Shown: positions 723 to 63,719 of the stretch, piece by piece
Numbering within the stretch: the stretch's first letter is position 1
How the letters are laid out: the number at the start of each line of letters is the position of its first letter
Assembly (NCBI RefSeq): GCF_004293625.1
Contig: NZ_CP033040.1
Coordinates: 2,681,001-2,745,000, forward strand
From: Thiomicrorhabdus indica
GTDB taxonomy: Bacteria; Pseudomonadota; Gammaproteobacteria; Thiomicrospirales; Thiomicrospiraceae
Length of the DNA: 64,000 nucleotides
Direction of reading: 5' to 3'
Translations under genes and position numbers: made by a program
Notes under the pieces: model-generated
The model's input: the letters and a program-made list of their open reading frames with translations, nothing else
What the model was told of the DNA's origin: nothing
The model's database searches: none

Positions 723-2453
723 ATGTTTATCCGCCTAAGTATTTTCTTGGTTTTCGCAAAACTTAGTATTTCGTTAAGTTTCGCTCAAAGCCCTTTGCAA
801 AATCACCCCAGTGAATATCTGGCGATGCACGCCAAAGACCCAGTTCAATGGCACCTGTGGAACACTGAAACCCTAATCAAAGCCCAACAACAAAACAAAC
901 TCATTCTCGTCTCAAGTGGCTATTTTTCTTGTCATTGGTGTCATGTCACCCAAAAAGAGCTTTATCAAAACTCTGAAATTGCCAACAAGATGAATCAACT
1001 TTTCATCAATATCAAAGTTGATCGTGAGTTAACACCCGAAATTGACCGGCAAATGATTGATTTTGCGAAACGCATTGTTGGTGCGGCTGGCTGGCCACAA
1101 CACGTCATTTATACACCGGCCGGTAAACCTTTCGCCGCCTTTACCTATCTTCCCAAAGACGACTTTACAAACTATTTGCAAAACCTTGAAAACCTCTGGA
1201 AAACAGAGCAATCGAAGATTGAGCAACTGGCGAGCCGTCAAAATTCCACAAAAACGACAATTCAACCCAATGCCGCCCAATCAATTACCAACCTATCGGC
1301 ACAAATCACCGATTCGGTAAAAAAGCATATGGATGATTTCAGTGGTGGAATCAAAGGCTCACATAAATTCCCCAACAGCCCGTTGTTATTAAGCTTACTC
1401 AAACAAAAAAACTTACCGGCCGGTATCAAAGAATGGCTCAAACTCACACTCAAACAAATGCAATCTCAACATTTGTTTGATCATGTGTATGGCGGATTTT
1501 ATCGATATACCGTGGACCCTGAATGGCAAACACCGCACTTTGAAAAAATGCTGTATGACAATGCGCAACTCTTGGAAGTGTATCTACGTGCCGCGATGAA
1601 ATGGCCTGAAAGTGATTTTTTACAAACTGCAGAAAACACTTTGAATTTTCTTCGCAAACATCTGTTTGATGACAGGCTCAAGCTTTATCTAGGCAGCCAA
1701 TCTGCCTTGGATCAATTTGGCCAAGAAGGTGGCGACTATCTCTGGACCCAAAATGCCCTTAAAAACCAATTATCGATAGCTGAGTTCGAACTGGTTGAAG
1801 CTGAATGGAATCTCAACCACACACCGCCCTATGAACTTGGCTTCCATCCCAAACCGACATCAAAGTATTGGTCATCAATTCAGGCAAAACTTCAGAAACG
1901 AAATCATAAACAACCGATACCCACTGACAGCAAGGCGATTGTCGCTTGGAACGCACTGTTACTCTCTGCGCTCAATGTCGCAACGGAAATTTCTCAATCA
2001 CAAAGCTTACCGGCTGGTGAGTTTCCTAACCTTTCAAAAAGCGCACAATTGACCGAGCAATTAGCCAATCGCTTAGCCGAAATCATTCTCGAATCCAATA
2101 TTCCACGCGCCCTTGCTTGGCAAAATAAACAAGTTATGTCACTTGCCACCGTAACACTAGAGGAAGTCGCTTATGGTTTAAAAGCATTGGCCAAGCTTCC
2201 AGAAAACATTACAAGCCCAGTTCATCAGCAAGCAATACAACAACTGTTACAACAAGCACAGAGCTTTTCAGCAAAAACAGGCTGGCGATTTACAACAACT
2301 TCACCCCATTATGAATGGCACATTGCCGACAATGAACTTCCCAGCCCAACCGCAATTCTGAACTGTTATCAAGCCCAATCGCCGGCCCTTAAAACCTTAC
2401 CGGCCGGCAAAGAAATCTGGCAATTTTCTAGCTACCTTAATCATTACAAATAA
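723..2453 (+). CDS. DUF255 (Thioredox_DsbH) thioredoxin-fold protein with signal peptide
   Basis: The 576-residue protein starts with a hydrophobic signal peptide (about residues 1-22, cleavage near AQS). The opening HPSEYLAMHAKDPVQW and the CHWCH motif (Cys70, Cys73) are the signature of the DUF255 family, also called YyaL or SPATA20-like: an N-terminal thioredoxin fold followed by an alpha/alpha barrel. The family usually has 600-700 residues, so the C-terminal part is a little short. A thiol redox role outside the cytoplasm is plausible from the CxxC and the signal peptide, but no substrate is known. Residues encoded by the ACCGGCCGGT repeat give Pro-Ala-Gly in at least three places (codons at 1116, 1416, 2400). 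Confidence 0.85.
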   Translation: MFIRLSIFLVFAKLSISLSFAQSPLQNHPSEYLAMHAKDPVQWHLWNTETLIKAQQQNKLILVSSGYFSCHWCHVTQKELYQNSEIANKMNQLFINIKVDRELTPEIDRQMIDFAKRIVGAAGWPQHVIYTPAGKPFAAFTYLPKDDFTNYLQNLENLWKTEQSKIEQLASRQNSTKTTIQPNAAQSITNLSAQITDSVKKHMDDFSGGIKGSHKFPNSPLLLSLLKQKNLPAGIKEWLKLTLKQMQSQHLFDHVYGGFYRYTVDPEWQTPHFEKMLYDNAQLLEVYLRAAMKWPESDFLQTAENTLNFLRKHLFDDRLKLYLGSQSALDQFGQEGGDYLWTQNALKNQLSIAEFELVEAEWNLNHTPPYELGFHPKPTSKYWSSIQAKLQKRNHKQPIPTDSKAIVAWNALLLSALNVATEISQSQSLPAGEFPNLSKSAQLTEQLANRLAEIILESNIPRALAWQNKQVMSLATVTLEEVAYGLKALAKLPENITSPVHQQAIQQLLQQAQSFSAKTGWRFTTTSPHYEWHIADNELPSPTAILNCYQAQSPALKTLPAGKEIWQFSSYLNHYK

Positions 2454-2559
2454 CAAAACCCTGCTACTTTATCCTATCCCGCCTCTTTAAACGAACCTCA
2501 GCTTGGTCATAACAACTCAGTCCATTACAATAAACTTTTCTCAAATTTAGAGCGGTTTT

Positions 2560-3243
2560 ATGGGCTTTTTAATTATTGGTTTTGTGTTGTTGTTTGTGCT
2601 CACGACCCTACCAAGTATTTGGACCAAATATATCCTCAACAAGCACCGAAAACCTCACCCAGATATTCCAGGAACAGGTCTACAGTTTGCCGATCATTTG
2701 GTAAACAAATTCAACTTGGACGTCAAAGTCGAAGAGACCGATCAAGGCGACCATTATGATCCGATTGATAAAGCGGTTCGAATCTCCAGCGCCAATGCAC
2801 ACTCCAACTCACTTACCGCAATCACTACCGTCGCTCATGAAATCGGCCACGCCTTGCAGCACCAAGAAGGCTACGAACCGCTTATGGAAAGAACCGCACT
2901 GGTCGAACGCGCGGCCATTATGCAAAAATTCGCTAGCGGTGCCTTATTGGTCACACCGGTTTTAATCGCCGTGGTTCACACACCTTTGATTGGAATTATC
3001 ACTTTTGGTGCTGGATTCATTGCGATGGGCGTCCCCGTGATTATTCATCTGAGTACATTGAAAGTAGAGTTTGATGCCAGCTTTGAGCGAGCTTTGCCGC
3101 TATTAAAGAAAGGAGAGTATTTAAACCATAGCGATCAACGCAAAGCCAAAAAAATTCTCTTTGCTTGCGCCATGACTTATGTTGCTGCGTCTCTATCGAG
3201 CTTATTTAACCTATGGAAATGGCTTAAAGCGATTAAGCGATAG
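2560..3243 (+). CDS. YugP-family zinc metallopeptidase (membrane)
   Basis: A 227-residue protein with an N-terminal membrane helix (about 1-20), a cytoplasmic HExxH zinc motif HEIGHALQHQ (His93, Glu94, His97) and further hydrophobic segments around 125-165 and 195-215. Length, motif context and topology match the Zn_peptidase_2/YugP family of uncharacterised neutral zinc peptidases. No substrate is known for the family. The gene stands alone, 106 bp after the DUF255 gene and convergent with the receiver-domain gene. A perfect copy of the ACCGGCCGGT palindrome lies in the gap that follows. Confidence 0.88.
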   Translation: MGFLIIGFVLLFVLTTLPSIWTKYILNKHRKPHPDIPGTGLQFADHLVNKFNLDVKVEETDQGDHYDPIDKAVRISSANAHSNSLTAITTVAHEIGHALQHQEGYEPLMERTALVERAAIMQKFASGALLVTPVLIAVVHTPLIGIITFGAGFIAMGVPVIIHLSTLKVEFDASFERALPLLKKGEYLNHSDQRKAKKILFACAMTYVAASLSSLFNLWKWLKAIKR

Positions 3244-3262
3244 CCTCTAACTGCCAAAGTTT

Positions 3263-3272
3263 ACCGGCCGGT
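3263..3272. repeat. Intergenic ACCGGCCGGT palindrome (extended TTTACCGGCCGGTAAA)
   Basis: Perfect palindrome over 16 bp (3260-3275) in the gap between two convergent genes. Its flanks are the same as those of the copy at 20193 for about 20 bp (AAGTTTACC...GGTAAACA). It may fold as a hairpin on either strand. Confidence 0.95.
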
Positions 3273-3310
3273 AAACATTGTTGGGATATCATTTAGCGAC
3301 GTTCAACACC

Positions 3311-4093: not shown

Positions 4094-4156
4094 CCAAAAT
4101 TTCCTTAGTTCTCTCTGATTTCTGTGTGATTAACGATAGACTAGCACACTCGTTGC

Positions 4157-5113
4157 TTAAACATCACCGACTATATTGTCACCATAGGTTTCTAGTTGCA
4201 AGGTGACGTGGTGTACCCGATGGGCACTCAGCAGATAATCTTTAATTTCACATAAAGTTTGATCATTAATATGCGACAAATCAGTTTTAGCATGCAACGT
4301 CATCATCACCTGATCTTCTGCAATCGCCCATAAATGAACATGGTGAACATCAGCAATGTAAGCAAAATTGGCTTCTAAATCTTGTTTAATTGCTTGGATT
4401 TCGTAACCGGCCGGTACACCTTCAAGCAAAATATGCGCAGACTCTCGCATTAATCGATAAGCGCCAATTCCAATAATGATAGCAATTGCTATCGACAAAA
4501 TCGGATCGATAACAAACCAGCCCGTGTAATAAATAATTATCGCACCCGCAATTACGCCGATTGATGCTAAGGTATCACCCAGGAAATGAAGCGTTGCACC
4601 GCGCATATTCATATTGTGTTGATCGCCCGAATGCAAAATCCAAAACACAATCAAATTATTTAACAAACCAATTACCGCAATAATAAACATCTCTTTGCCC
4701 ATAATGGGTTGCGGTTCCAAAAAACGCTGTACCGCCATAATGACAATTCCACCGACAATCAGTAGCAAAGTAAATCCATTCACAAACGCAGTTAAAATTT
4801 GAAACCGCTGAAAACCAAATGTCATTCTTTCGGTCGCGCTTTTCTGGCTCATATGGAAACCCCACCAAGCCACCAACAAAGCCATGGCATCGGTCAACAT
4901 ATGGACACCGTCTGCAACCAATGCGACAGAATTTACCCAGAGCCCACCAATGATTTCCACCAGCATATAAGAGGCGGTCAAGACCGCAGCAATCAGCACT
5001 TTTTTCTGATTATTCTTGTTGGGTTTTGAAATATGAGAATGATGATAAGCCACCGGCTGGACCGTTTTGGACTCCACATTCTCTTTAGCTGCCTGAATGG
5101 ATAACTTTGTCAC
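4157..5113 (-). CDS. Cation diffusion facilitator (CDF) heavy-metal exporter
   Basis: A 318-residue inner-membrane antiporter of the CDF family (ZitB/CzcD type) exporting Zn2+ or related divalent metals against protons. Six membrane helices are visible from about residue 38 to 215. The transport site is present as the HxxxD pair in TM2 (His71, Asp75, after VALVADG with Asp68) and the second pair in TM5 (HFLGD). The C-terminal cytoplasmic domain (LLEGVPAGY onward) has the His residues of the regulatory site (HHVHLWAI). The N-terminus carries a short His-rich patch AYHHSHISK. Pro-Ala-Gly in VPAGYE is encoded by a copy of the ACCGGCCGGT repeat (4406-4415). Metal specificity cannot be read from sequence alone. 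Confidence 0.92.
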   Translation of the reverse strand: MTKLSIQAAKENVESKTVQPVAYHHSHISKPNKNNQKKVLIAAVLTASYMLVEIIGGLWVNSVALVADGVHMLTDAMALLVAWWGFHMSQKSATERMTFGFQRFQILTAFVNGFTLLLIVGGIVIMAVQRFLEPQPIMGKEMFIIAVIGLLNNLIVFWILHSGDQHNMNMRGATLHFLGDTLASIGVIAGAIIIYYTGWFVIDPILSIAIAIIIGIGAYRLMRESAHILLEGVPAGYEIQAIKQDLEANFAYIADVHHVHLWAIAEDQVMMTLHAKTDLSHINDQTLCEIKDYLLSAHRVHHVTLQLETYGDNIVGDV

Positions 5114-5131
5114 AATGTTTTCCTCAAAATA

Positions 5132-5881: not shown

Positions 5882-5902
5882 CCTGTTTAATTTCTTATGA
5901 GC

Positions 5903-6946: not shown

Positions 6947-6962
6947 CCCTATAAATGGCGAA

Positions 6963-7004: not shown

Positions 7005-7033
7005 AAATAGCTCCATGCAACTAATGCTTTTTT

Positions 7034-8254
7034 ATGCCCATTGAATCCATTGAACAAAGATTTACCGGCCGGTTAAAACAACGTCAAGACGAACATTTGT
7101 ATCGTCATAGACCTTTGAGTTTTTCCCCACAACAGCCGCACATGCAAATCAATGGCGTGCACTGTATCAACTTCTGTTCCAACGACTATCTGGGGCTGGC
7201 CAATCATCCAAAAATTCAACAACGACTGATTGAAGTTCTACAAAATCAAGAAGTAAGTTACGGTTCTGGTGCTGCTCACTTAGTAACGGGACACCACCTA
7301 CAACACCATTTGCTGGAAGACGAAATTGCGGATTGGTTAGGCGTCGAACGCGTCCTCTTGTTTTCCACAGGCTTTATGGCAAATTTAGCGGTACTTCAAA
7401 CCTTTGCACAAAAAGGCGATGTAATTCTTGGCGACAAGCTCAACCATGCTTCATTAATTGATGGCGCTTTACAATCTGAAGCCGATTTCAAACGTTATCC
7501 GCATCTTGATACAAAAGGCTTAGAAAAGCGCTTAAAAGCCGCTAAAAGTGCCAAACAACAAGCCATTATTGTCACCGATGGCGTTTTTAGTATGGATGGT
7601 GATTTAGCACCGCTGGATAAAATTCAAGAATTAGCCGGCCGGTATAATGCCTGGCTAATTGTCGATGATGCTCATGGATTTGGTGTACTTGGAGAACAAG
7701 GTCGAGGCACCTTAAGCCACTTTAAATTAACGCCTGATTTGAACACTTTACAAATCGGTACACTCGGCAAGGCCTTTGGTTGCGGTGGAGCCTTTATTGC
7801 AGGTTCCAACACCGCCATTGAAGCTCTTATTCAATTTGCTCGCCCATACATTTACACCACCGCCAGCCCACAACTGAATGCTGTTGCTGTACGCGAAGCA
7901 TTAAAAATTATTAAACAGGCTGACAATAGCCGTCAAAAGCTGCAAATGCTCATAAAACAGTTCCGAAAAGGCGTAAAAAACTTAGGATTATCGCTCTGGG
8001 ATTCTCCGACAGCGATTCAGCCAATTCTTCTAGAAAACTCTGAAAAGGCCATTCAATGGTCTGAAGCTCTTAAAAAACAAGGTTTTTGGGTCGCGGCCAT
8101 TCGCCCACCAACCGTCCCTCAAAACCAAGCGCGGTTGCGAATCACACTCAGTGCAAGCCATACACCTAAACATGTCGAAGCACTTATAGAAGCTTTGAAA
8201 AGCTTGGCGAACCAGCTCCCATGCACCTCAACACAACCTGCACCAAAAAAATAA
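7034..8254 (+). CDS. bioF: 8-amino-7-oxononanoate synthase
   Basis: BioF is a PLP enzyme that condenses pimeloyl-ACP (or CoA) with alanine in biotin synthesis. The 406-residue protein shows the AOS-family fold: YGSGAAHLVTG substrate region (near 76-86), IVDDAHGFGVLG with the PLP-stacking Asp/His (211-214) and the Schiff-base Lys246 in GTLGKAFGCGG. Two ACCGGCCGGT-type sites fall in it: a perfect one at 7064 read as Thr-Gly-Arg in the variable N-terminus, and a one-mismatch one at 7634. No bioH, bioC or bioD follows; the rest of the pathway must lie elsewhere. Confidence 0.96.
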   Translation: MPIESIEQRFTGRLKQRQDEHLYRHRPLSFSPQQPHMQINGVHCINFCSNDYLGLANHPKIQQRLIEVLQNQEVSYGSGAAHLVTGHHLQHHLLEDEIADWLGVERVLLFSTGFMANLAVLQTFAQKGDVILGDKLNHASLIDGALQSEADFKRYPHLDTKGLEKRLKAAKSAKQQAIIVTDGVFSMDGDLAPLDKIQELAGRYNAWLIVDDAHGFGVLGEQGRGTLSHFKLTPDLNTLQIGTLGKAFGCGGAFIAGSNTAIEALIQFARPYIYTTASPQLNAVAVREALKIIKQADNSRQKLQMLIKQFRKGVKNLGLSLWDSPTAIQPILLENSEKAIQWSEALKKQGFWVAAIRPPTVPQNQARLRITLSASHTPKHVEALIEALKSLANQLPCTSTQPAPKK

Positions 8255-10826: not shown

Positions 10827-11867
10827 ATGAGACGTTTTTATTGCCACTGCGGTCATGAAATCAATTTTCATGAGCATTTTTGTAAAGCTTGTGGCCGAGA
10901 TTTAGCCTACGATCCGAAAATTGGTACTCTATGGAGTGGAGAGCTTCGAGACAGCAATCAGTTCTTTGCCCACAGTCAAGGTCATCAAAAAAACCTCTTA
11001 TTTCAAACCTGCAGCCATCGCCATCATGACGTAGGCTGTAATTGGCTACTCATCCAAGGTGACGACAACTGCCAATGCATTGCCTGCCGAACAACCCGCG
11101 TCATTCCAGACCAAACGCATGAAAAAAATGCCAACCGCTGGTTTCGACTAGAACGTTCCAAACGTCAGTTATTTCAAACCTTAATCGATTTACAACTAAT
11201 TAAAGCCAACCGGCCGGTTGAGTTTTCAGATTTACAATTCGACTTTCTCGAAGATAAACGTAGTAACCCAAATTTAGACTTAGACCACGTTCTCAGTGGC
11301 CACTGTGACGGCTTAATCACCATTAATGCGGCAGAAGCCGATGAAAGCTTTTTGCACACCATGAAAGAACAAATGCAAGAACTGTATCGCTCGCTTCTTG
11401 GCCACTTTCGCCATGAAATTGGCCATTACTTTTGGCTAAAATTCTTTAATTCGGAAGAAAAAATACAACAATTCCGTGAAGTCTTTGGCGACGAACGCCA
11501 AGACTATGCCCAAGCTTTACAAGGCTATTATGATGCCAACAATCAATCCCATTGGCGCAGTCGCTATATCACCCCTTATGCCAGCAGCCACCCTCATGAA
11601 GACTGGGCCGAGACTTGGGCCCACTATTTACACATTGTTGACACCCTGCAAACCGCTCAAAGCTTTGGCTTAAGCATTTACGAACCTCAAGCACACAACT
11701 TTGATCATTGGTTTAATGAATGGCGACGAGTCTCTCAAGTGATGAATGCTCTGAACCGCAGCATGGGACTCGCGGAGCCTTACCCATTTCGAGTATCTGA
11801 AATGGTCGAAGGAAAACTCCGTTTTATTGACGAAACCATTGCTCGCCATACCAAAGAACACAATTAA
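10827..11867 (+). CDS. Zinc-ribbon Peptidase_Mx-type putative metallopeptidase
   Basis: The 346-residue protein opens with a zinc ribbon (Cys6, Cys8, Cys19, Cys22 in FYCHCGH...FCKACGRD), has a second Cys cluster (CQCIAC near 82-87), and carries an HExxH catalytic motif in GHFRHEIGHYFWLKFF (His196, Glu197, His200). Further family features are YASSHPHEDWAETWAHYLHI, which supplies the downstream third ligand region. This matches the Peptidase_Mx family (PF15887). It follows the alpha-E gene by 17 bp and forms one transcription unit with it and the ATP-grasp. The Arg-Pro-Val at 129-131 is encoded by an ACCGGCCGGT copy. Confidence 0.88.
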   Translation: MRRFYCHCGHEINFHEHFCKACGRDLAYDPKIGTLWSGELRDSNQFFAHSQGHQKNLLFQTCSHRHHDVGCNWLLIQGDDNCQCIACRTTRVIPDQTHEKNANRWFRLERSKRQLFQTLIDLQLIKANRPVEFSDLQFDFLEDKRSNPNLDLDHVLSGHCDGLITINAAEADESFLHTMKEQMQELYRSLLGHFRHEIGHYFWLKFFNSEEKIQQFREVFGDERQDYAQALQGYYDANNQSHWRSRYITPYASSHPHEDWAETWAHYLHIVDTLQTAQSFGLSIYEPQAHNFDHWFNEWRRVSQVMNALNRSMGLAEPYPFRVSEMVEGKLRFIDETIARHTKEHN

Positions 11868-11868: not shown

Positions 11869-11878
11869 ACCGGCCGGT
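11869..11878. repeat. Intergenic ACCGGCCGGT palindrome (AATACCGGCCGGTATT)
   Basis: It starts 2 bp after the peptidase stop codon and extends to a 16-bp perfect palindrome (11866-11881), followed by a T-rich run (TATTTTTTAAA). In this position it could fold and act as a terminator for the three-gene module on the + strand. Confidence 0.9.
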
Positions 11879-13428: not shown

Positions 13429-13438
13429 ACCGGCCGGT
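13429..13438. repeat. Intergenic ACCGGCCGGT palindrome (GTTACCGGCCGGTAAAC)
   Basis: Perfect copy in the 83-bp gap between two convergent genes (13377 end, 13461 end). Palindromic flanks extend it to 14 bp with further symmetry beyond. Confidence 0.95.
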
Positions 13439-13460: not shown

Positions 13461-14633
13461 TTACCACTTGGAAATGGATTGCGAGGCTTTCAACAAAGCC
13501 TCAGTCTCTTGATAAGGCACCGATTGCCAAACCTCTTGGCAATAGGATTGAATCATTCGCTTTTCTTCAGCTAAAAACCCCTGAATCCCCTGCTCAAATG
13601 GATTCACACTCAACCAGTGGCTAGACTGCATTTTCACTGGAACAAATCCTCGTGCAACCTTATGCTCACCGCCTGCACCGGGTTCAAACCGTTCCAATCC
13701 GTTAGCAATAGCGTAATCAATCCCTTGATAAAAACAGGTTTCAAAATGTAAATGTTTGACCTGCTCAATCGCACCCCAATGACGGCCATACAACACCTTA
13801 TCCGAACGAAACATTAAAGCCCCTGCAATCGCTTGAGCTTTACGCCTAACCATAACCAATACCAATGATTCAGGCATGGTTTTGGCAATTTCTAAAAAGA
13901 AATCCAGATTCAGGGTTGGAGTGGAGAATTTATCCAGAAAAGTTTTGTGATAAAACACATTAAAATCATGCCAATCGTCTTCCGTCGCACTATGTCCATT
14001 TAACACATCAAACGTCAAATCCTGCTCGGCAATTGCGCGGCGTTCCTGACGAATATTCTTGCGTTTTTTTGGCTTTAAAGCCGCCAGAAAATCCTCAAAA
14101 CCCTCATAGCCTTGATTGAACCATTGAAACTGAACATCATGCCGACACAAAATTTCACGATCGTTTACATAATCACTTTGTGCATCATCAAACAAGATAT
14201 GAAAACCACTGTAACCTTGTTCATCAGTAAAATCTTTTAAGGCCTCTAGGATGGGTTGAATTGTTACCGGCCGGTCGGAAAAATCTGAACGTACAAACAG
14301 CCGAGGGCCAACTGCAGGTGTGTATGGCGCAGCACTAACTAACTTTGGATAGTAATTGAGCCCCACACTTTGCCACGCTTGATGCCATGCATGGTCAAAT
14401 ACAAACTCGCCGTAATTGTTATGCTTCTCATACAACGGCATAGCAGCGACCGGCTGCCCTGCCTCAAACGCCACAAAATGCTTCGGAAACCATCCAAAAC
14501 GCTCAGAAACGCAACCATGTTTTTCTAAAGCGGCCAGAAAAGCATGTTGAACAAAAGGGTTTTTAGAGTGATGTAAGTTATTCCAAACGCTTTCATCAAT
14601 CTCCAGAATCGAGTCCAGAACTTTAAAATCCAT
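13461..14633 (-). CDS. GNAT/FemAB-like acyltransferase (DUF482 family)
   Basis: The 390-residue protein belongs to PF04339 (peptidoglycan biosynthesis/recognition, FemAB-like), with the GNAT fold twice over. Landmarks: NPFVQHAFLAALEKHGCV, SAAPYTPAVGPRLF, GFHILFDDA, FQWFNQGYEGFEDFLAALKPKKRKNIRQERR, LYGRHWGAIEQVKHLHFETCFYQGIDYAI and FEPGAGGEHKVARGF. These are typical for the family, whose substrate is not known. An ACCGGCCGGT copy at 14266 encodes Arg-Pro-Val. The gene is monocistronic on the minus strand. Confidence 0.88.
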   Translation of the reverse strand: MDFKVLDSILEIDESVWNNLHHSKNPFVQHAFLAALEKHGCVSERFGWFPKHFVAFEAGQPVAAMPLYEKHNNYGEFVFDHAWHQAWQSVGLNYYPKLVSAAPYTPAVGPRLFVRSDFSDRPVTIQPILEALKDFTDEQGYSGFHILFDDAQSDYVNDREILCRHDVQFQWFNQGYEGFEDFLAALKPKKRKNIRQERRAIAEQDLTFDVLNGHSATEDDWHDFNVFYHKTFLDKFSTPTLNLDFFLEIAKTMPESLVLVMVRRKAQAIAGALMFRSDKVLYGRHWGAIEQVKHLHFETCFYQGIDYAIANGLERFEPGAGGEHKVARGFVPVKMQSSHWLSVNPFEQGIQGFLAEEKRMIQSYCQEVWQSVPYQETEALLKASQSISKW

Positions 14634-20192: not shown

Positions 20193-20202
20193 ACCGGCCG
20201 GT
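20193..20202. repeat. Intergenic ACCGGCCGGT palindrome (TTTACCGGCCGGTAAA)
   Basis: Between convergent genes, 33 bp after the terminator. Shares about 20 bp of flanking identity with the copy at 3263. Confidence 0.95.
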
Positions 20203-20220: not shown

Positions 20221-21960
20221 TTAAGTTTTATCTAAGCCCAATTTTTTAAAGCGATAATTAAACTGCCTTGGCGTCATGTTTAACATTCTAGCCGCATGGC
20301 TTTTATTTCCATGCGCTCGCTCCAATGTCTGCAACAATATGTCCACCTCATTTTCACTGACTTTCCAATAACTTCGTTTCGCGTCTTCTGCAGACCTAGA
20401 AACAGTGGCAACTTGACCGGCCGGTAATTGTGCAGCAGGAACCGCTTGCGGCGGCAAAAAACCACTTTCAGGCGCAAATGCTTGCGCACCCGTTTCTTGA
20501 GCTGAATTAGCATTAGCAAAACGATTGGCCACATATGGTGGCTCTTGCACCTCTTGCGAATTCAACATCGGTGCAGTCCGAGACTCTCCCGTAAACTGAA
20601 TCCCACTCTCTTCCGTTAGAATTTTTTGCATTAAAGTTTCATTAATCAAACGGCCATCATCGGCTAACAACACTGCTCGTTTAATGACATTCTCCAACTG
20701 ACGAATGTTTCCAGGCCACTCGTAGGTTTCTAAAAATGCTAAAGCGCCACGATCAAAAATAACATTCGAACCATACTCTTGGTTCGCTTGGTTTAAGAAA
20801 TGACGCGCCAATAAACGAATATCACCATCACGATCTCGCAAAGGCGGAAGCTCAATCGGAAACACATTCAAACGATAAAACAAATCCAAACGGAAGTTAC
20901 CTTCATTGACAGATGTTTGCAGATTTTTATGCGAAGCCACCACAATTCGAACATCTACCGGAATTGGCTTATTAGAGCCCACTCGAGTAATAGAGCGCTC
21001 TTCCAATACACGTAACAGCTTAGCCTGCAAGCCCAAATCCAAATCCCCGATTTCATCTAAAAACAGCGTTCCGTGATGAGCCATTTCAAGCTTTCCGATC
21101 TTGGTCGCTGTTGCGCCGGTAAACGCACCTTTTTCATGACCAAAAAGTTCTGACTCCAAAAGCTCCAATGGGATTGCGGCACAGTTTATGGCAATAAAAG
21201 GGCCATCCTGTCGATTCGATGCCATATGCAACATACGAGAGAACTTCTCTTTACCTGTTCCCGACTCACCTTTTAGCAACACCGTTACAGAAACATTGGC
21301 GGCACGCGCCGCTTTATTTAAAGAAGCCATAACCGCAGGGCTCTCACCAATAATTCCGTATTGACTCCCCTGACTTAAAGCAACTGCGCGTAACTGCTCA
21401 TTCTCCTCCTTCAGGATTTGTGTTTGCTTTTCCAACATGGCATTCACAGACAGAATCTCACTGACAAACAGAGCCATCAACTTCAGCACACTCAAGTCTC
21501 GATCCAATGAACGACTACGGTTTTTCAGGCGGTTCACCGCCATCACCCCCACCGCTTTTCCTTTTCGAAGAATCGGTGTAGCAATAAAGGCAACTGGCTC
21601 TTGAGGCAATGTGGCACGATCAACCGTTCGACAAAGATAATCATCTTCTAAATCAATATTAGGAATAATCACTGGGGTGGCCATTCGCATGACTTTACCC
21701 GTAATCCCTTCATTTACTGCAAATCGACTGCGCGCAATTTCAAGCTCGGTCAACCCAAAGGAATAGGCTGTCGACAATACGGAACTCCCAGGCTCTTTCA
21801 ATAAAACACGCCCACGATTCAACCCCATTTGTCGAGAGATCAAACTCAAAATTCGACTAATCGCCTCATCAGGTTTATGCGACAATTCAATCTGTTCCGC
21901 CGCTTCTTTAATGACGCTATATTCCGAATAATCCGCAATATCCAGTGTGTCTTTTGACAT
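20221..21960 (-). CDS. GAF-domain sigma-54-dependent activator (NifA-like)
   Basis: The 579-residue enhancer-binding protein has an N-terminal GAF sensor (about 25-175), an AAA+ ATPase (about 203-435) with Walker A GESGTGKE (231-238), the sigma-54 contact loop GAFTGA (278-283) and Walker [10 protein letters not shown] (299-307), a 90-residue low-complexity linker, and a C-terminal Fis-type helix-turn-helix ([23 protein letters not shown]). The architecture is that of NifA and AnfA-type regulators. Its gene lies between the oxidoreductase operon and the ABC importer, and TGT-N10-ACA and sigma-54 promoters exist nearby, so it is the natural regulator of the block. What the GAF senses is unknown. 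A Pro-Ala-Gly in the linker comes from an ACCGGCCGGT copy (20416). Confidence 0.93.
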
Positions 21961-25491: not shown

Positions 25492-25887
25492 GAAACTCTC
25501 CTAAATTCCGTAACACCTGAGCTATAACACCAATTCAACCAACAACAAATAACCCTTAATTTTCAATAACTTATGAAAAAACATAAAAACATTTAGTTGA
25601 TAATATTACAAAAACAGTGCAATTCGCACCAAAACACCACCCATTTGTTGCTTTTTGAAGAGTTTTGTTTCTAATTGTTAAACAATGTAAAAAAAGAAGC
25701 CAATCATTCGACCTTTTCACGCTCCCACTTATCGGAACAATCAATGGCTTCCAATTCGTTTTACGAAAACACGCGAAAACATTACCGGCCGGTAAAAAAC
25801 ATAGAACCGAGCTTTGCATTAAATTTGCCACGGGCTGTGACTATAATAGTTTCCTGTTGAAATTCTTCTGATAGGATCTGTGTTCAC
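25492..25887. promoter_or_regulatory. Divergent regulatory gap, ABC cluster 1 / recC
   Basis: About 396 bp without a gene. It contains TATG-N6-CATA at 25572-25585, the same form as the activator-site array of cluster 2, and GTGC-AATTC-GCAC at 25615-25627. I found no GG-N10-GC sigma-54 promoter for the ABC operon here; the nearest candidate has a spacing of 8 and is rejected. A copy of the ACCGGCCGGT palindrome lies at 25784-25793, about 95 bp before recC. Confidence 0.4.
25784..25793. repeat. Intergenic ACCGGCCGGT palindrome upstream of recC
   Basis: Perfect 10-mer within ATTACCGGCCGGTAAA, in the divergent gap between the ABC operon and recC. Confidence 0.95.
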
Positions 25888-46742: not shown

Positions 46743-47977
46743 TAGAAAGTGAACTTATAACCAAATTGAACGATGGTAGCCGAGAGGTCGGAGCTTTGTG
46801 GCAAACTCTCTTGCACGCCCGGAAGGGCATGCTTATCATCCGAGCTTTGTTCGTATTGCTCTAAACGAAGACTGAATTCACTGCCACTTTCTGTTCTGTA
46901 AGCGAGCTTTGCTCCCACGGTGAAGGCTGAAAGCTCCGACAAGCGGCTGTCTGAACTTAAGTGATCACCAAATTCTGGCGACTCATCAAGGTGGTGCTGA
47001 TAAAAATCAGCGGCCGTTTGCTGGTAGTAGCGAACCTTTGGCGTTAGCGAGAATTTCTCATTCCAATTCCAACGATACTTGGTCTCTACGGTATGCGACG
47101 TAATCCCCCAGTCATCTGAGGTCAAACGATAAGACGCATCAAAGGTATCGCCCCAAGAAAGGTGACGACGGTAGTTAGTATGTAAGTAGGTTTTTAAACG
47201 ATTATCAGGCCGGTTTTCATAAAAATAAGCCACAGGACGTCCGTTATCATCCAACTGACTGACAAACTTGTAAGGGTCTGTGTGATAGCCTGAAGAGCTC
47301 GCAAGACCCACACTGGCCTGAATGAGACTTCTTTTATCCAATACTTGACTGATTCCAACTCTCGCCTCTGCAGTAGTTCTCTGCTCATCGCCGTCTTTAC
47401 GCTGTAGAGAGATATCACTGCTGCCAATTGGCGCACCACCCACCGGACGAATCATATCTTGGGTTAGAGAAACACCCCAATTCAAGGTGGTGTTTTTCTG
47501 ATTAAAATAATGTGTCATTCCGCCATTCAGTGATAAAGATGTAAAATCATATTCACTCGAAACACTGAGACCAAGGTTGTAACGATCACCGGAAGCAAGT
47601 GGTGCATCGTAGCTTGCACTGACTTGAGCACGCGTATCTTTGAAGGTGTCATCCAAAGGAATCTCACCGGCCGGTGTGGTATAGCTACCCTTGCCACTCG
47701 GTCGGGTGAAGGTTTGCGGCTGATCGGATGCGGTCGCACCATTCGGAGACGCGCCAGTAAGAGCGTCTACGACGACCTTCACACCAATCACAGAACCATC
47801 TTCTTGGGTTTTCTTTAAGCTTATCGCCGGCTCAACCGCTGAAACACGATCTTGTTCATCATAAATAAGCATCGCCGAGTCCACTTCCCACTCGGCTTGC
47901 ACAGCACCACTCGCCCCTAAACAAGTCATTGAAGCAATGGTCAATTGCGAGATAAGATTCGATTTTGTTAATTGCAT
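46742..47977 (-). CDS. DUF3570 outer-membrane beta-barrel protein
   Basis: A 411-residue protein with a signal peptide (cleavage about QAEW) and alternating beta strands ending in VQFGYKFTF-like C-terminal Phe (IVQFGYKFTF), the outer-membrane barrel signature. DUF3570 proteins keep WEVDSAMLIYDEQDRVSAVEP and TGASPNGATA near the N-terminus, as here. Always found with ApbE and DUF4266 genes. Role unknown; possibly metal or electron transfer linked. A copy of the palindrome (47666) gives Pro-Ala-Gly. Overlaps DUF4266 by 10 bp. Confidence 0.9.
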   Translation of the reverse strand: MQLTKSNLISQLTIASMTCLGASGAVQAEWEVDSAMLIYDEQDRVSAVEPAISLKKTQEDGSVIGVKVVVDALTGASPNGATASDQPQTFTRPSGKGSYTTPAGEIPLDDTFKDTRAQVSASYDAPLASGDRYNLGLSVSSEYDFTSLSLNGGMTHYFNQKNTTLNWGVSLTQDMIRPVGGAPIGSSDISLQRKDGDEQRTTAEARVGISQVLDKRSLIQASVGLASSSGYHTDPYKFVSQLDDNGRPVAYFYENRPDNRLKTYLHTNYRRHLSWGDTFDASYRLTSDDWGITSHTVETKYRWNWNEKFSLTPKVRYYQQTAADFYQHHLDESPEFGDHLSSDSRLSELSAFTVGAKLAYRTESGSEFSLRLEQYEQSSDDKHALPGVQESLPQSSDLSATIVQFGYKFTF

Positions 47978-48207: not shown

Positions 48208-48696
48208 TCAATTTCCTTGAATTTTTTGTTGGATAAGTTGCTGGATACTTTCAGCGTCTTTCTTTAAGAACCCCTGATGCTGCCAAACAATTTGTCCTTC
48301 CGGATTAATCAAATAAGACGTCGGCATGGCTTGGACTTGCAGAGCGCTTGGCAAGGTGCCTTGAGCATCAAAAAGAATTGGGAAACTAGCGGGAGTGGTT
48401 TGCAAAAAAATGTCGGCATCTTGCCGGTTTTCATCGACATTAACGGCAACCACAGTAAAATTTTTTGATTGCATTTGTTGATGCAACTGATTCATAAAAG
48501 GAAAAGAAGCTTGGCAAGGCGCACACCAAGAAGCCCAAAAATCCAAGTAAATCCACCGGCCGGTATAGTTTTGTAATTCTGGAGAAAGTTTATGCAGTGT
48601 TAAGGTTTCAGCATAAGCAAAAGAATTTGGACTCACCCAAATCAGACTGCTGAAAATGACAAGCATTTGAATCAATTTGGTGAGCGTTGAATACAT
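48208..48696 (-). CDS. TlpA-like periplasmic thioredoxin
   Basis: A 162-residue protein with an N-terminal membrane/signal segment (LIQMLVIFSSLIWVSPNSFA) and a thioredoxin fold with FWASWCAPCQASFPF active site (CxxC near residue 55). The start at 48696 is preferred because GAGGA lies 6 bp upstream. TlpA/ResA-type proteins reduce disulfides in the periplasm, often for haem or metalloprotein maturation. It opens the operon with DUF4266, DUF3570 and ApbE. A TGR encoded by the palindrome copy at 48555 sits before the active site. Confidence 0.88.
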   Translation of the reverse strand: MYSTLTKLIQMLVIFSSLIWVSPNSFAYAETLTLHKLSPELQNYTGRWIYLDFWASWCAPCQASFPFMNQLHQQMQSKNFTVVAVNVDENRQDADIFLQTTPASFPILFDAQGTLPSALQVQAMPTSYLINPEGQIVWQHQGFLKKDAESIQQLIQQKIQGN

Positions 48697-48982: not shown

Positions 48983-50239
48983 TTATCTTCGAGTAATAAA
49001 ACGCCACAACCAAATTACTGCCAATAACTTAATGATGGAAGGAACCAAAGCATACATCAACGTTAAAGGCTCTGTAGATGCACCACTTGCAACACCAGGT
49101 TGATAACCCAAAAACCCCAACACAGGCAAACTGATACCTGTGGCGAGTGCTAACGATGATTTTGTGAAAAAGTTCATGAGGGAAAAGGCTCTGCTCGACA
49201 GATTCTGAGTATTGGATTGATGAATATTATCTGCCAGAATCGCTGGCGGCAATGCCAAGTCTGCGCCGAGAGCCAAACCAGACAAAACACAAATAATGGC
49301 AAAAGGCACTACATCCCCTTCTTTTAAAGTAAACGCCCAACCAAACACCAAAACGGCAAGCAACATACTCCAAAACCAGACGACTGTTTTCCCATGCACT
49401 TTCGACAATCTTTGCCAAAGCGGCATTCCCAACACTCCGCTCATAAAATAGAGTAGTAAAAAGAGACCTATCCATTGTTCAGCCTGCAGATGATCTTTAA
49501 TAAAGAATAGCACCAAGACACCTGGAATCGCCGCTGCAACATTATTAATCAGATAAATCCCAAAGAAGCTTTTTGCCCAAGAAGTGTTTATGGATTGCCA
49601 ACTAGAGGGTAAGTTATCCGTATTGCTTACCGGAGAAAGCTTTACTTTGCGAAACCAAAGCCAAAAACTCAAAAAACCCAATGCGAGTAAGGGCAAAAAG
49701 ATTAGAGTTAACAGGTGAAATCCACCGGCCGGTGAATAATTTTGATTCAGCCAAGTCGGTAATGCGGCAGCAACGATCAATCCTAAAAGTCCAATACCTT
49801 CACGCCAACCTGTAATTCTTGTTCGTTCGGCAGGCGAACACTGCCAAAGCCCACCCAAAGATTGGAAATTTATACTCATTACACTAAAGCCTGTTGTGCT
49901 TAAAAACACAGCCAGACTGAAATGAAGCATAGGAGCACTTTCAGAAGGGTGAAACAGTAGCCAAAATCCAGCAGCTAATAACCCAGCACCCAAAAGCATA
50001 ATCGCCAATCTATTTTCAGAATAACGATCACTGAGTGAGCCAATCCAAGGGTCTTGTATGGCATCAATTAAGCGCAATACCAGTAACGCTGTTCCCAAAT
50101 TGACCAATGATAGCTGAAGTTCTGAAGCATAAAATTCAGGCGCATGCATATACAAAGGCAGACCGACAAAAGCTAAGGGAAAAGCCAATAAACCATATTG
50201 AATTAAATGCTTTGATCTTAGTACGTTCGTATCTTGCAT
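48983..50239 (-). CDS. MFS transporter (GPH/melibiose type)
   Basis: I start at 50239 (418 residues, MQDTNVLRSKHLIQYGL), with GGTGA 8 bp upstream, instead of a longer frame that adds a Cys-rich lead. Twelve membrane helices are predicted; the motif LRLIDAIQDPWIGSLSDRY resembles the GPH (sodium:melibiose) branch, which carries sugars or related substrates. Substrate cannot be inferred from context; the next upstream gene is a chalcone-isomerase-like protein. A palindrome copy at 49724 gives Pro-Ala-Gly. Confidence 0.85.
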   Translation of the reverse strand: MQDTNVLRSKHLIQYGLLAFPLAFVGLPLYMHAPEFYASELQLSLVNLGTALLVLRLIDAIQDPWIGSLSDRYSENRLAIMLLGAGLLAAGFWLLFHPSESAPMLHFSLAVFLSTTGFSVMSINFQSLGGLWQCSPAERTRITGWREGIGLLGLIVAAALPTWLNQNYSPAGGFHLLTLIFLPLLALGFLSFWLWFRKVKLSPVSNTDNLPSSWQSINTSWAKSFFGIYLINNVAAAIPGVLVLFFIKDHLQAEQWIGLFLLLYFMSGVLGMPLWQRLSKVHGKTVVWFWSMLLAVLVFGWAFTLKEGDVVPFAIICVLSGLALGADLALPPAILADNIHQSNTQNLSSRAFSLMNFFTKSSLALATGISLPVLGFLGYQPGVASGASTEPLTLMYALVPSIIKLLAVIWLWRFITRR

Positions 50240-51133: not shown

Positions 51134-54121
51134 ATGCGTAATAATCAACCAGTTTCCAACAATGAATACTTGTTAAGTGATGGACTCGTCTTGGTCTCTA
51201 AAACCGACCTTCAAGGAACCATCATCTATGCAAATGAAGATTTCATTGAAGCCAGTGGATATAGTTATGACGAAATAATCGGTCAACCCCATAACATCCT
51301 GCGCCACCCTGATGTCCCTGAAGCAGTATTTGCCGACCTTTGGGCAACCATTCAAAAAGGACGACCATGGCGACAAGTGGTCAAAAATCGACGCAAAAAC
51401 GGAGATCATTACTGGGTAATCGCAAATACCTCTCCGATTTATGAAAATGGCAAAATCATTGGTTATTTGAGTGTTCGAAAAGCGGCTTCTGATGAACAAA
51501 AGGTAGCCGCCGCAGAAGCTTACAAAGCCATTTCCGAAGAAAAACTTTCTCTTACACACGGTCAAGTCGATAGCTTATGGCGTCGACTAAATCCTTTTGC
51601 ACACTGGAACCCTTTAGTCACAGTCATCCCAGCGACCTTAGTTGCTATTCTTGCCGGTTTTTCGGTTTTTATATGGGAAGAAATCCCATCATGGTTAAAT
51701 GCAATCACCGTATTCTTAACCGTCCTATCCACCATTCACATTTTGTATTACCTGCATCGTATTCAAGATGCAATTGGCGCTATCCGCAGTATTCGAGACG
51801 GCAATTTTTTCAGCTTTATTGATATTCACGGTGAAAACACTTCTGGTGTCATCAATCGCCAAGTACAAAACCTACAAACGCGCCTAGGCGCTCAAATGAA
51901 TGAGATCGGCATCAACCTCAAAAGCGCTCAACGACTATCCGCAGGCCTTGATAACCAACAATCCATGATGATGCTCGCCGACCAAAACGGTACGATTACC
52001 TACATGAACCAATCTCTAAAAGATTTCTTACTGCCTTTAGAAGAAAACATTCGCCAAGAAGTGCCAGATTTCCAAACTGAAAGTCTAATCAATAAGTCTA
52101 CCGGCTGCTTGTTTAAACATGACTTGAACCTACTCAATGAAATTCTCACACTTACAGCTCCCAAAAATTTTGAGTTTGAATTTTTTGGCGCCAATGTCGG
52201 CCTAACCGTCAGTCCCATTAATATTGATAATCAAAAGCTTGGAACCGCGTTGGAATGGGAAGATATTTACCAAAAACAACATGTTCAAGAAGGTTTTAAA
52301 AACATTGTCGCCGATGCTCGCACCGGCCGGTTACATTCTCGAATGAACCCTGAAGGTTTGGATGGCTTTTTCTTAGAGATGGCGGAAGGCATTAATCTAT
52401 TGATGGACAACCTGCAAGCCACGATGAAAGACATCAGCATCATGATTAATGGCCTCTCTGAAAAAGATTTAAGCATGCAGCCAAAGTTTACGCATTCAGG
52501 TCAATTTGACTGGACAGTCAAAAACCTCGTTGATGGCTTTGAATCACTCAGAGCCTCATTTTGTGGTGCATCGGATTTGGCACAAGAAGTCTACCAATCA
52601 GCAGAAAGTGTCTCTGCGAGTAATGAAGAACTGTCCGAATCGATTCGTAATCAAGTGAAGGAACTTCAATTAACCACTCAAGCCATGAATGCAATTACTG
52701 AGAAAGTTGAAGGTACCTCTCAAGAAGCACATCAAGCAAATGAATTGGCCATAAACACTCAAAAACAGATTGAAACCGGCAATCAGAATATGGCTCAAGC
52801 CGTTCAAGCGATGAATGAAATTGAAAAAGTTAGTGAAGAAATTACCGGCATTGTCAGCCTCATTGACAGCATCGCCTTCCAAACTAACCTGTTAGCATTG
52901 AATGCTGCGGTTGAAGCCGCTCGTGCGGGTGAGCATGGTAGAGGCTTTGCAGTGGTAGCTGGCGAGGTTCGAAGTCTTGCTCAACGCTCAGCCGATGCCG
53001 CTCGAGAAATCAAATCTTTGATAGATCAAACGGCTGAAAAAATCTCATCCGGAACCGAAAAAGTTGTCCGAACCAGTGAAAACCTGTCTGAAATCATTCA
53101 GCACGTTCAGGAAATGGCGACACGCATCTCGACAATTTCCAATAATTCGCATGAACAATCCCAAGAAATTATCCAAATTAGTCGTTCTATTCAAGAAATT
53201 GACCAGTCGGCCGAAACCAGTGCCGCTCTGGTGATGGAAAATAGTTCACTGTCCAACTACTTACAAGAAGTGGCTGACACAATGGATGATTTGGTGTCAT
53301 CGTTTGAATTAGGAGATTGTGATCAACTGGTTTCTACTGGTAAGGCTGATCCTAAGAAACCTCGCGTTCTGGTTGTGGATGACAATCTCTCTAACCAAAA
53401 AGTCGCAGAGATGGTCTTGAAAAAATTTGGATACCGCGTTCTGAATGCCTCTGACGGCCAAAGCGCGGTTAATAAGGTTTCTCAATACAAACCGGATGCC
53501 ATCTTAATGGATATTGAAATGCCAAGAATGAATGGTATCGAAGCCACCAAACGTATTTTATCTAATGGAAATCGTACACCAATTTTCGCCTACACTGGCC
53601 ATAAAGATTCTGATGTTCAAGAGTGTCTAGATATTGGTATGCTTGGCATTCTACATAAACCTCTCAAACCGATGGAACTCAAGCAACTTCTTGAAAAAGC
53701 AGGCATTAAAGGGTACATGAGTGAAACTGAAATCTTAGCCGCTAAACGAAATAAAATCCTCAAAAATTCTGCACTTGCCCAGCGCTTTGATGAAATGATT
53801 AATGCACACTTGGCATGGAAAAAACGGATTCGTCAATTTATCAGTGGCGCTGAAATTGGCGTGACACAAGAAAATGCGGTTGATCATACCGCATGTGTTC
53901 TCGGTAAATGGCTCTACTCAGAAGGTCAAAACATGATAGATTCAAGCATTATGCAAACGCTTGAACCTGCACATGCAAAAATGCATAGTACGATTGGCGT
54001 CATCATGGATGCGTTTGAGCAAGACGATTATGACACACTTGAATCTAGCGTTAAGGATCTGGATGAATACAGCGATAAAGTTGTGAAGTTATTGAATCAA
54101 CTCATTTTGCAACAAGGCTAA
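51134..54121 (+). CDS. PAS-chemoreceptor (MCP) fused to a receiver and a CZB domain
   Basis: Starting at ATG 51134 (GGGG 8 bp upstream), the 995-residue protein combines an Aer-like PAS domain (about 15-115, with [38 protein letters not shown]), two membrane helices (about 165-205), a degenerate second PAS, a methyl-accepting signalling hairpin ([38 protein letters not shown], about 575-635), a receiver domain ([14 protein letters not shown] with Asp near 792 in [13 protein letters not shown]) and a C-terminal CZB zinc-binding domain ([33 protein letters not shown]). CZB domains bind zinc with one Cys and three His. Receptor and receiver in one chain is unusual. Confidence 0.9.
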
Positions 54122-54207: not shown

Positions 54208-54217
54208 ACCGGCCGGT
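54208..54217. repeat. Intergenic ACCGGCCGGT palindrome
   Basis: Perfect 10-mer between the hairpin at 54173 and the convergent histidine-kinase gene ending at 54227. Confidence 0.95.
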
Positions 54218-57363: not shown

Positions 57364-57373
57364 ACCGGCCGGT
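57364..57373. repeat. Intergenic ACCGGCCGGT palindrome
   Basis: Perfect copy in the 38-bp gap between the two histidine kinase genes. Confidence 0.95.
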
Positions 57374-61650: not shown

Positions 61651-61665
61651 CAGCTATCCTTAGCG

Positions 61666-62775: not shown

Positions 62776-63224
62776 AACAATTAAACCTACCGATTTTAGA
62801 GGAATAAGTAATAGTGCCCAAGTGTATCTTGTCTAACAAGGGTGGTAAAGAATTTTACTCATTTCGAAAGAATTAACCGGCCGGTAGGGACATTGAACTT
62901 ATCTTCTCTAATTAAAAACATTAATGGTTAGACTTTCTAAAAATGCCTATTTGATTGAGCAGTTTGTATCCCAATTAGTTGAAAACCATAAACACCTACT
63001 TTGATCAACTAAACGATAACTTTTTATGCCCAGTACGATCCGAATATTCAAAACATTCAACAGCTCACGGAAACCACTAAGTATCGTTTTTCATTGATCC
63101 CAAAAGAGACCTACGCCACAGCGTTGCAAAAGATGCATGTCCTGAATTCTCACTGTCAGAGCTTTTTTGTTTTTGTCGAAAAAACTATAATTCTCAGAAA
63201 ATTTTAGTGCTAAAGGGATAACCA
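62776..63224. other. Intergenic region upstream of the HD-GYP operon
   Basis: About 449 bp without a convincing gene. It contains a perfect ACCGGCCGGT copy at 62876-62885. Otherwise nothing recognisable. Confidence 0.4.
62876..62885. repeat. Intergenic ACCGGCCGGT palindrome
   Basis: Perfect 10-mer (TTAACCGGCCGGTAGG) about 100 bp upstream of the HD-GYP gene. Confidence 0.95.
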
Positions 63225-63719
63225 ATGTGTGGAGGAGTGGAATATCAATGGAATGATCAGGCAATGCGTATCTATTTCCCGACCCCCAATGCACAGTTAC
63301 CAGTCATTCGAAAAGATGGTCAATTAGAACTCGTGACCTGGGGTCGACGTACTGAGGAAAACACCCCAGAAGCAGAGGGCTTTCCCGTCAATGGCTGGGT
63401 TCGGTATGAAAGCTACCTAAACCCTCAATCTTCTTGGCGCAACTTTCGTCATAAAGAGGTAAAAATTGCCGTTCCACATTTTATGGAAAAAGATCAAAAT
63501 GGGAAGTCCCACTGGTTTAGTTTGCAGTCCAATGAGTATATTCGCGGGCTATTGCTCATTATAGAGAATCGCTGGCGAGTCTATGTTATGACATCGGAAC
63601 CGCCAGAAGAGGCAACACCTTACCTTCAAGAACAAAGCTTTCATGATGACTTATTCGGAGCGATTCCTACCCGGCCGGTTGAAATCCATCATCGCTGGCC
63701 AATGACTGGAAAACTCTAA
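63225..63719 (+). CDS. Divergent SRAP (HMCES/YedK)-like protein
   Basis: The 164-residue protein begins MCGG; in SRAP proteins the Met is removed and Cys2 forms a covalent link with abasic sites in single-stranded DNA. Segments that align by pattern are LELVTWGRR (family WGL-x-P), NGWVRYES (family NARxET) and a helix-strand with HWFSLQSNEYIRGLLLI and YVMTSEPPEEA. The final HHRWPM sits where the family has the catalytic His motif. It is about 60 residues shorter than typical SRAP, and the usual Arg-Phe after MCG is Gly-Val here, so catalytic competence is uncertain. A one-mismatch palindrome at 63670 encodes Arg-Pro-Val. Confidence 0.5.
   Translation: MCGGVEYQWNDQAMRIYFPTPNAQLPVIRKDGQLELVTWGRRTEENTPEAEGFPVNGWVRYESYLNPQSSWRNFRHKEVKIAVPHFMEKDQNGKSHWFSLQSNEYIRGLLLIIENRWRVYVMTSEPPEEATPYLQEQSFHDDLFGAIPTRPVEIHHRWPMTGKL

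What the first reader, a model, noticed from the sequence alone, without database searches (positions are those of the whole stretch)
1115..63679. Highly iterated palindrome ACCGGCCGGT, 23 perfect copies in 64 kb
A 10-bp palindrome of eight G/C bases should occur about 0.02 times in 64 kb at roughly 41-42% GC, yet I count 23 perfect copies and 6 more with one mismatch outside an intact CCGGCCGG. It is spread over both coding and non-coding DNA, on average one per 2-3 kb, like HIP1 (GCGATCGC) in cyanobacteria, or uptake sequences in Pasteurellaceae and Neisseriaceae, though those are not palindromic. Candidate roles: a methylation site, a DNA-uptake or self-recognition tag (a ComF gene is in the window), a Chi-like or chromosome-organising site, or a product of biased mismatch repair. 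I know of no description of this motif in such an organism.
Basis: partly seen in the sequence, partly recalled or inferred. Interest (0 to 1): 0.88.

Follow-up and report, generated by a model that had tools for sequence, protein, structure and literature searches.

The report
Species-specific repeated DNA palindrome, family-wide
A ten-letter DNA palindrome is repeated about a thousand times in this bacterium, and many of its relatives carry their own version of it, as if each signs its DNA in a dialect; the best guess, not proven, is a self-recognition tag for taking up DNA.

Summary
The window has 23 perfect ACCGGCCGGT and six more intact CCGGCCGG; shuffles give 0.02 of the former. The whole 2,829,883-bp genome has 1025, with one for the reversed control, so the window is typical. 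None of the 61 other genomes held for the family exceeds 15 copies. Instead 27 of 62 carry 106-856 copies of a related palindrome, CCAGGCCTGG, of which this genome has none. Small samples show further variants centred on GGCC. In 365 sampled genomes of the class outside the family the maximum is 46. So the word is this species' dialect of a family-wide iterated palindrome. A/T tracts flank the core in several groups. Sites are densest between converging genes, form terminator-like pairs, and are nearly missing from an ICE and a Dnd island. No PF00145 or PF01555 methylase was found; phosphorothioation is unlikely. I judge a self-DNA uptake tag, like Neisseria's but palindromic, most likely (about 0.4). 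A site for a dimeric chromosome protein is close behind. Function is inferred; no receptor or competence was shown.

The parts
1115..1124 (.). ACCGGCCGGT
1415..1424 (.). ACCGGCCGGT
2400..2407 (.). CCGGCCGG core, right end base differs
3263..3272 (.). ACCGGCCGGT, between converging ORFs
4406..4415 (.). ACCGGCCGGT
7064..7073 (.). ACCGGCCGGT
7635..7642 (.). CCGGCCGG core, left end base differs
11209..11218 (.). ACCGGCCGGT
11869..11878 (.). ACCGGCCGGT
13429..13438 (.). ACCGGCCGGT, between converging ORFs
14266..14275 (.). ACCGGCCGGT
20193..20202 (.). ACCGGCCGGT, between converging ORFs
20416..20425 (.). ACCGGCCGGT
25784..25793 (.). ACCGGCCGGT
26906..26915 (.). ACCGGCCGGT, inside recC
28656..28663 (.). 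CCGGCCGG core, right end base differs, inside recC
30595..30602 (.). CCGGCCGG core, left end base differs, inside recB
31286..31295 (.). ACCGGCCGGT, inside recB
31717..31726 (.). ACCGGCCGGT, inside recB
33807..33814 (.). CCGGCCGG core, left end base differs, inside recD
42579..42588 (.). ACCGGCCGGT
47666..47675 (.). ACCGGCCGGT
48555..48564 (.). ACCGGCCGGT
49724..49733 (.). ACCGGCCGGT
52322..52331 (.). ACCGGCCGGT
54208..54217 (.). ACCGGCCGGT, between converging ORFs
57364..57373 (.). ACCGGCCGGT
62876..62885 (.). ACCGGCCGGT
63671..63678 (.). CCGGCCGG core, left end base differs

Best explanation
Shown: ACCGGCCGGT is this species' version of a highly iterated palindrome found in many genomes of its family, most often as CCAGGCCTGG, with GGCC at the centre and, in several groups, A/T tracts outside. 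Inferred: a DNA-uptake or pilus protein, acting as a dimer or on a sharply bent duplex, prefers DNA that carries the site; the core gives specificity and the A/T tracts help the DNA bend. Because tagged DNA is taken up and recombined back more often, sites accumulate in resident DNA and change together in each lineage, giving dialects. Places where they do little harm, such as gene ends and terminators, hold the most sites per base.
For: 1025 copies here, 0-15 in 61 other family genomes; CCAGGCCTGG at 106-856 copies in 27 of 62 family genomes, 0 here; variants AGCAGGCCTGCT, GCCAGGCCTGGC and ACAGGCCTGT in samples of 20-40 kb. A-rich positions about -8 to -6 from the core in own, genus-mates, g3, G024 and G041. 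Density in 60.2% of the genome: ORFs 0.25/kb, divergent gaps 0.66, tandem 1.35, convergent 2.43. 33 close pairs, 32 outside ORFs, like the inverted DUS pairs described in PMC3630211 (passages). Three sites in 60 kb of an ICE and none in 26.7 kb that includes the Dnd genes, where the mean is 7.39 per 20 kb. Over-representation falls about 97-fold from perfect to one-off words, near the 92- and 82-fold falls given for H. influenzae and N. gonorrhoeae (PMC1939737, one section read; their expectation was computed otherwise). ComEC is found in this genome and in 27 of the 28 bearers; the exception, G035, is 82% complete.
Against: The USS is not palindromic (PMC12616744, passage) and DUS is not either (recalled). 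In raw counts one-off words are few: 181 perfect, 59 one-off, 24 of them in the inner eight bases, whereas the two Neisseriaceae quoted in PMC3630211 have more one-off than perfect DUS. ComEC is also found in 29 of 34 non-bearers, so presence does not track it. The GspH/FimT profile matched 3 of 62 genomes and told nothing; no receptor was identified. No close pairs in the sister samples (102, 21 and 45 sites; 1.2, 0.2 and 0.5 expected by chance). The A/T tract is absent or weak in g6/g7. Two papers hold both 'natural transformation' and 'Hydrogenovibrio' (listing only, not read); I saw no evidence of competence in this family.
Confidence: 0.4

Rival explanations
1. The palindrome is the site of a dimeric chromosome-organising or gene-end protein (nucleoid protein, supercoiling or termination factor) that covers about 24 bp, and the dialects follow changes in its reading head.
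For: Perfect palindrome with A/T tracts outside and independent left and right flanks (221 sites with both flank bases, 214 expected); few inner one-off words; near-Poisson spread (variance 8.50, mean 7.39 per 20-kb tile); excess between converging genes.
Against: No candidate protein was found or sought beyond the families named. A change of word between related species is unusual for a general chromosome protein (inference). Several relatives show no similar word in their samples.
Confidence: 0.3
2. HIP1-type: a DNA methylase marks the site, and methylation-directed mismatch repair or selection accumulates it.
For: Palindromic; one-off words lie mostly at the ends and none was seen at the centre in this genome, as Elhai describes for HIP1 (PMC4390886, first part and passages). 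ACCGGCCGGT contains two overlapping RCCGGY, named there in connection with an alternate HIP.
Against: No PF00145 or PF01555 match in this genome, nor in bearers G022, G026, G048, G049. In the 60.2% fetched, 12 frames hold the NPPY-type motif; Pfam makes four of them methylases: an HsdM type, an Eco57I type, a PrmC-like one and RlmJ; the first two are adenine-methylase families (recalled). MethyltransfD12 was not searched genome-wide.
Confidence: 0.13
3. A Chi site for the RecBCD that this genome alone has among the genus genomes held.
For: RecC in this genome and in none of 31 genus-mates; full-length RecB likewise; copy density is of the order of E. coli Chi (recalled).
Against: Genus-mates without RecC carry the sister word at high copy. 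Of the 12 RecC carriers, the eight in g2, g4 and g5 have at most 9 copies of either word, and G052, G053, G060 have the sister word. Chi is read on one strand (recalled), so palindromic A/T-flanked sites are not expected.
Confidence: 0.04
4. Phosphorothioation site of the Dnd system present in this genome.
For: DndB and DndE match Pfam; DndC and DndD are named from a PAPS-reductase and an SMC-like match and gene order; GGCC is a known target in other species (PMC12193691, passages).
Against: The DndC loop reads GYPAPTRSFRW, the TRS type tied to GAAC/GTTC in PMC12193691. G036 also has DndE but 3 copies of the word. The stretch that holds the Dnd genes has no copy.
Confidence: 0.02

Closest known systems
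DNA uptake sequences (DUS) of Neisseriaceae and USS of Pasteurellaceae
   Same: About a thousand copies per genome, dialects in related species with a shared core, inverted pairs at gene ends, preference for permissive places
   Different: Palindromic; fewer one-off copies in raw counts; G053 and G060 samples mix two forms; receptor and competence unknown here; another bacterial family
HIP1 (GCGATCGC) and alternate HIPs of cyanobacteria
   Same: Short GC-rich palindrome, similar density, alternates in related species, one-off words mostly at the ends
   Different: No match in the two methylase families searched; A/T tracts outside the core; excess between converging genes (not compared with HIP1 data here)
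Chi sites
   Same: Density, possible tie to recombination
   Different: Palindromic with flanks on both sides; distribution does not follow RecBCD
REP/BIME elements
   Same: Gene-end preference, paired copies
   Different: 10-bp word without a longer element; 377 of 628 sites lie inside ORFs

Membership tests
DUS/USS uptake sequence | Genome-wide over-representation of one short word | tested here: met
DUS/USS uptake sequence | Dialects in related species with a common core | tested here: met
   minor dialects rest on 20-40 kb samples
DUS/USS uptake sequence | Inverted pairs at terminators | tested here: inconclusive
   33 pairs, 32 outside ORFs, 23 with a T-rich end but without a control for that; none in sister samples
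DUS/USS uptake sequence | Competence machinery present | tested here: inconclusive
   ComEC present; GspH/FimT profile uninformative
DUS/USS uptake sequence | Promotes uptake or transformation | not testable with these tools
   needs experiment
DUS/USS uptake sequence | Graded excess of one-off words | tested here: inconclusive
   59 one-off against 7.7 expected, a 97-fold fall from perfect, near the published falls; raw ratio far lower than in two Neisseriaceae
HIP1-type highly iterated palindrome | Short iterated palindrome with alternates in relatives | tested here: met
HIP1-type highly iterated palindrome | Methylase able to modify the word is present | tested here: inconclusive
   none in PF00145, PF01555; PF02086 not searched genome-wide; 60.2% scanned by motif
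Chi | Tracks the RecBCD/AddAB type | tested here: not met
Dnd phosphorothioation site | DndC loop of the GGCC type | tested here: not met
   TRS loop; rule from PMC12193691

The most novel reading that the evidence does not exclude
A palindromic self-DNA tag for natural transformation, a third lineage of uptake sequences besides Neisseriaceae and Pasteurellaceae, with at least four dialects in one family, read by an unknown dimeric or duplex-bending receptor.
Probability: 0.38. Interest if true: 0.87.

Novelty: new variant of a known kind. Interest (0 to 1): 0.74.

Why it matters
The papers seen here name two bacterial families with uptake sequences, and the USS receptor is still unknown (PMC12616744, abstract). 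A family with a palindromic word, clear dialects, and bearers and non-bearers within one genus would let the reader protein be sought by matching protein change to word change. If it is not an uptake tag, it is a highly iterated palindrome for which no methylase was found in the two families searched, which would not fit the methylase model of PMC4390886 in its simple form.

Tried and rejected
Phosphorothioation looked promising (GGCC core, Dnd genes present) and was dropped on the DndC loop. Chi looked promising when RecBCD proved unique among the genus genomes, and was dropped when genus-mates without RecC had the sister word. Methylases: two Pfam families negative; D12 left open. GspH/FimT presence: the profile matched 3 of 62, no use. 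Ortholog mapping: 56 ortholog-like pairs gave 11 mapped own coding sites, 0 at a sister word (0.02 expected), too few to judge. Viral contigs: 35 stretches with TTACCGGCCGGTAA, one site each, one contig listed twice; no motif-rich virus seen.

Literature, an open-licence library only: ACCGGCCGGT occurs in 9 papers, by their listed titles and abstract beginnings none on this subject; CCAGGCCTGG and related strings in 848, 30 listed, none of those on this subject. Searches (10 papers; 65, 20 listed; 2; 65, 15 listed; 18, 15 listed; 0) listed no title on such a motif in this family. One listed paper on Hydrogenovibrio holds 'palindrom' once (PMC6501319) and was not opened. Papers opened: PMC4390886 (first part and passages), PMC12193691, PMC6186775, PMC12616744, PMC3630211 (passages), PMC1939737 (outline with abstract, and one section).

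Full report
The observation. The window holds 23 perfect ACCGGCCGGT and 29 CCGGCCGG, six of them with one changed end base. Dinucleotide shuffles give means of 0.02 and 0.25. The genome has 1025 copies in 2,829,883 bp and 1 of the reversed control, so the density in the window equals that of the genome. An order-3 Markov model of DNA with the word masked expects 0.28 sites in 504 kb against 181.

Extent of the motif. In 504 kb, 217 CCGGCCGG cores have A just left of the core (T just right) in 91%, then T-rich positions -4 to -2 and A-rich positions -8 to -6; beyond that little or nothing. The profile pools both sides, so its symmetry is by construction. The two sides vary independently: 221 of 628 sites have both T on the left and A on the right of the 10-mer, 214 expected. 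The footprint is about AAAnTTTACCGGCCGGTAAAnTTT.

Relatives. The family search covered 62 genomes, and the order search returned the same 62. The 61 others have 0-15 copies. Samples of 20 or 40 kb were taken from 19 of 31 genus-mates. In the first 11, seven showed CCAGGCCTGG or its core CAGGCCTG, one (G024) ACAGGCCTGT, and three (G029, G030, G051) nothing similar. In the other eight (20 kb each) G041 showed AGCAGGCCTGCT, G046 a weak excess of CAGGCCTG, G023 a few similar non-palindromic words, and five nothing similar. Counted whole, CCAGGCCTGG has 106 copies or more in 27 of 62: 10 genus-mates, 7 of 11 in g3, 9 of 9 in g6 and 1 of 1 in g7; five more have 15-44 (G024, G033, G041, G046, G047); this genome has none. 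Samples of G052 favour AGCAGGCCTGCT, of G005 GCCAGGCCTGGC, and G053 and G060 mix two forms. In 369 genomes drawn from the class, 365 of them outside the family, the maximum outside is 46. The 16-base form TTTACCGGCCGGTAAA in a collection of 84,980 species gave 94 stretches, 80 listed, one site each except one stretch with two; the own genome and very near ones may be left out there. In 464 kb of this genome that form has 6 copies, so an equally rich genome should have shown dozens. g3 is probably Hydrogenovibrio, because G008 has a contig of 2,491,293 bases, the size given for H. marinus MH-110 in the abstract of PMC6797543 (listing); other names are not known.

An A-rich stretch near -8 to -6 recurs around the sister word in genus-mates (102 sites), g3 (21), G024 (12) and G041 (10), but not in g6/g7 (45). 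A different core inside a similar frame suggests one recognition system whose specificity has changed; that is inference.

Where the sites lie. ORFs were called crudely (80 codons or more). In 1,704,000 bases (60.2% of the genome) there are 628 sites: 377 in ORFs (0.25/kb), 143 in tandem gaps (1.35/kb), 72 in convergent gaps (2.43/kb), 31 in divergent gaps (0.66/kb), 5 at edges. All three frames are used: P-A-G 238, R-P-V 78, T-G-R 61 (offsets 2, 1, 0; labels as). In the first 504 kb they were 65, 23 and 17 against codon-usage expectations of 0.15, 0.01 and 0.02, so the pressure is on DNA rather than protein. In the sister samples convergent gaps are also rich in genus-mates (2.10 against 0.35/kb in ORFs, 11 sites) and g3 (4.52 against 0.27, 4 sites); g6/g7 had one such site. 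33 pairs lie 18-36 bp apart, 32 outside ORFs, and 23 have at least five T in nine bases after one arm; the T count has no control, and the flanks of the word are A/T-rich anyway. Three pairs are copies of one duplicated segment. In the first 504 kb 13 pairs within 30 bp compare with 1.95 expected for uniform sites. Inverted pairs tied to terminators are described for DUS (PMC3630211, passages). The sister samples have no such pair, with 1.2, 0.2 and 0.5 expected by chance.

Mobile DNA. 85 tiles of 20 kb average 7.39 sites, variance 8.50. Six have two or fewer. Three in a row at 1820001-1880000 have one each; they hold TrfA, TraG_N and ParA, TraC, TraU, TrbI-like and coupling-protein matches, and secretion ATPases, secretin, ArdC and a topoisomerase, and a phage-type integrase lies at 1889199-1890047, so this is an ICE. 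The tile at 2040001 has none and carries an integrase-like and a transposase-like frame (by eye); the motif-free stretch 2033670-2060404 includes the Dnd genes. The other two low tiles, 1580001 and 2580001, show signalling, metabolic and transport genes and no mobile marker among the ten frames examined in each, so low density is not confined to islands.

One-off words. Of 59 one-base variants in 504 kb, 35 are at the end base, 24 in the inner eight bases and none at the central pair; 7.7 were expected in all. Genus-mates have 36 of 43 at the end base and none at the centre; g3/g6/g7 have 23 of 31 at the end base and 3 at the centre. In raw counts this is sharper than DUS (943 perfect to 1372 one-off, 4265 to 4914; PMC3630211, passage) and resembles the description of HIP1 (PMC4390886, passage). 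Relative to expectation, however, the excess falls from about 645 to 6.7, 97-fold, close to the 92- and 82-fold falls in H. influenzae and N. gonorrhoeae (PMC1939737, one section), whose expectation was computed differently. So this point does not decide between the readings.

Methylation. PF00145 matched 16 of 32 genus genomes (15 over the cut-off) and PF01555 9 of 32, this genome in neither; bearers G022, G026, G048 and G049 also lack both. Elhai warns that a GGCC methylase of Anabaena belongs to MethyltransfD12 (PMC4390886, passage). The other 40% was not scanned.

Phosphorothioation. The genome has a Dnd cluster. The DndC loop is GYPAPTRSFRW, which PMC12193691 (passages) ties to GAAC/GTTC, not GGCC.

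Recombination. RecC is in 12 of 62 family genomes and, within the genus, only here; full-length RecB likewise within the genus. RecC here is about 50% identical to those of G052, G053 and G060 and 30-38% to the four other RecC loci compared. Neither word follows RecBCD.

Competence. ComEC is found in 56 of 62 genomes, in 27 of the 28 bearers and 29 of 34 non-bearers. This permits the tag but does not prove it.

Judgement. Shown: a real, genome-wide word, private to this species among the genomes searched, that belongs to a family-wide set of iterated palindromes with dialects. Inferred: what reads it. The dialects, A/T tracts, gene-end preference, pairs and absence from islands fit a self-DNA tag; palindromy and the sharp core fit a dimeric DNA-binding protein. 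Both can be true if the uptake receptor is dimeric.

Noticed in passing
25888-34206: RecC, RecB and RecD genes; RecC and full-length RecB are in none of 31 genus-mates. Genus-mates show ~1200-aa AddA-like frames instead, none of which appeared in this genome's hit list.
   Followed up: partly
L085:14335-19284 and L086: DndB, C, D, E genes with a GAAC/GTTC-type DndC loop, beside a stretch with integrase-like and transposase-like frames.
   Followed up: partly
L038, L282, L302, L322 (genome 1820001 to about 1890047): ICE with TrfA, TraG_N, TraC, TraU, coupling protein, ArdC, secretin, topoisomerase and integrase matches; three motif copies in its first 60 kb.
   Followed up: yes
genome 477742, 486530, 762290: Three near-identical segments that contain a motif pair; alike for about 100 bases in all three, longer in two.
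   Followed up: no
L216 (G055:C1:500001-520000): Many copies of CCGCTGGAGCC-type words, probably a local repeat.
   Followed up: no
L192, L193 (G030) and L210 (G008): Small excess of GGTTCGAACC and CGTATACG palindromes, possibly chance or other dialects.
   Followed up: no
genome 24352-41330 and 173114-189145: Two motif-free stretches of 16-17 kb; no Rfam match in L269 and L270, which cover most of them.
   Followed up: partly
L300:9116-11753: Two ankyrin-repeat proteins in a low-motif tile at genome 1580001.
   Followed up: no
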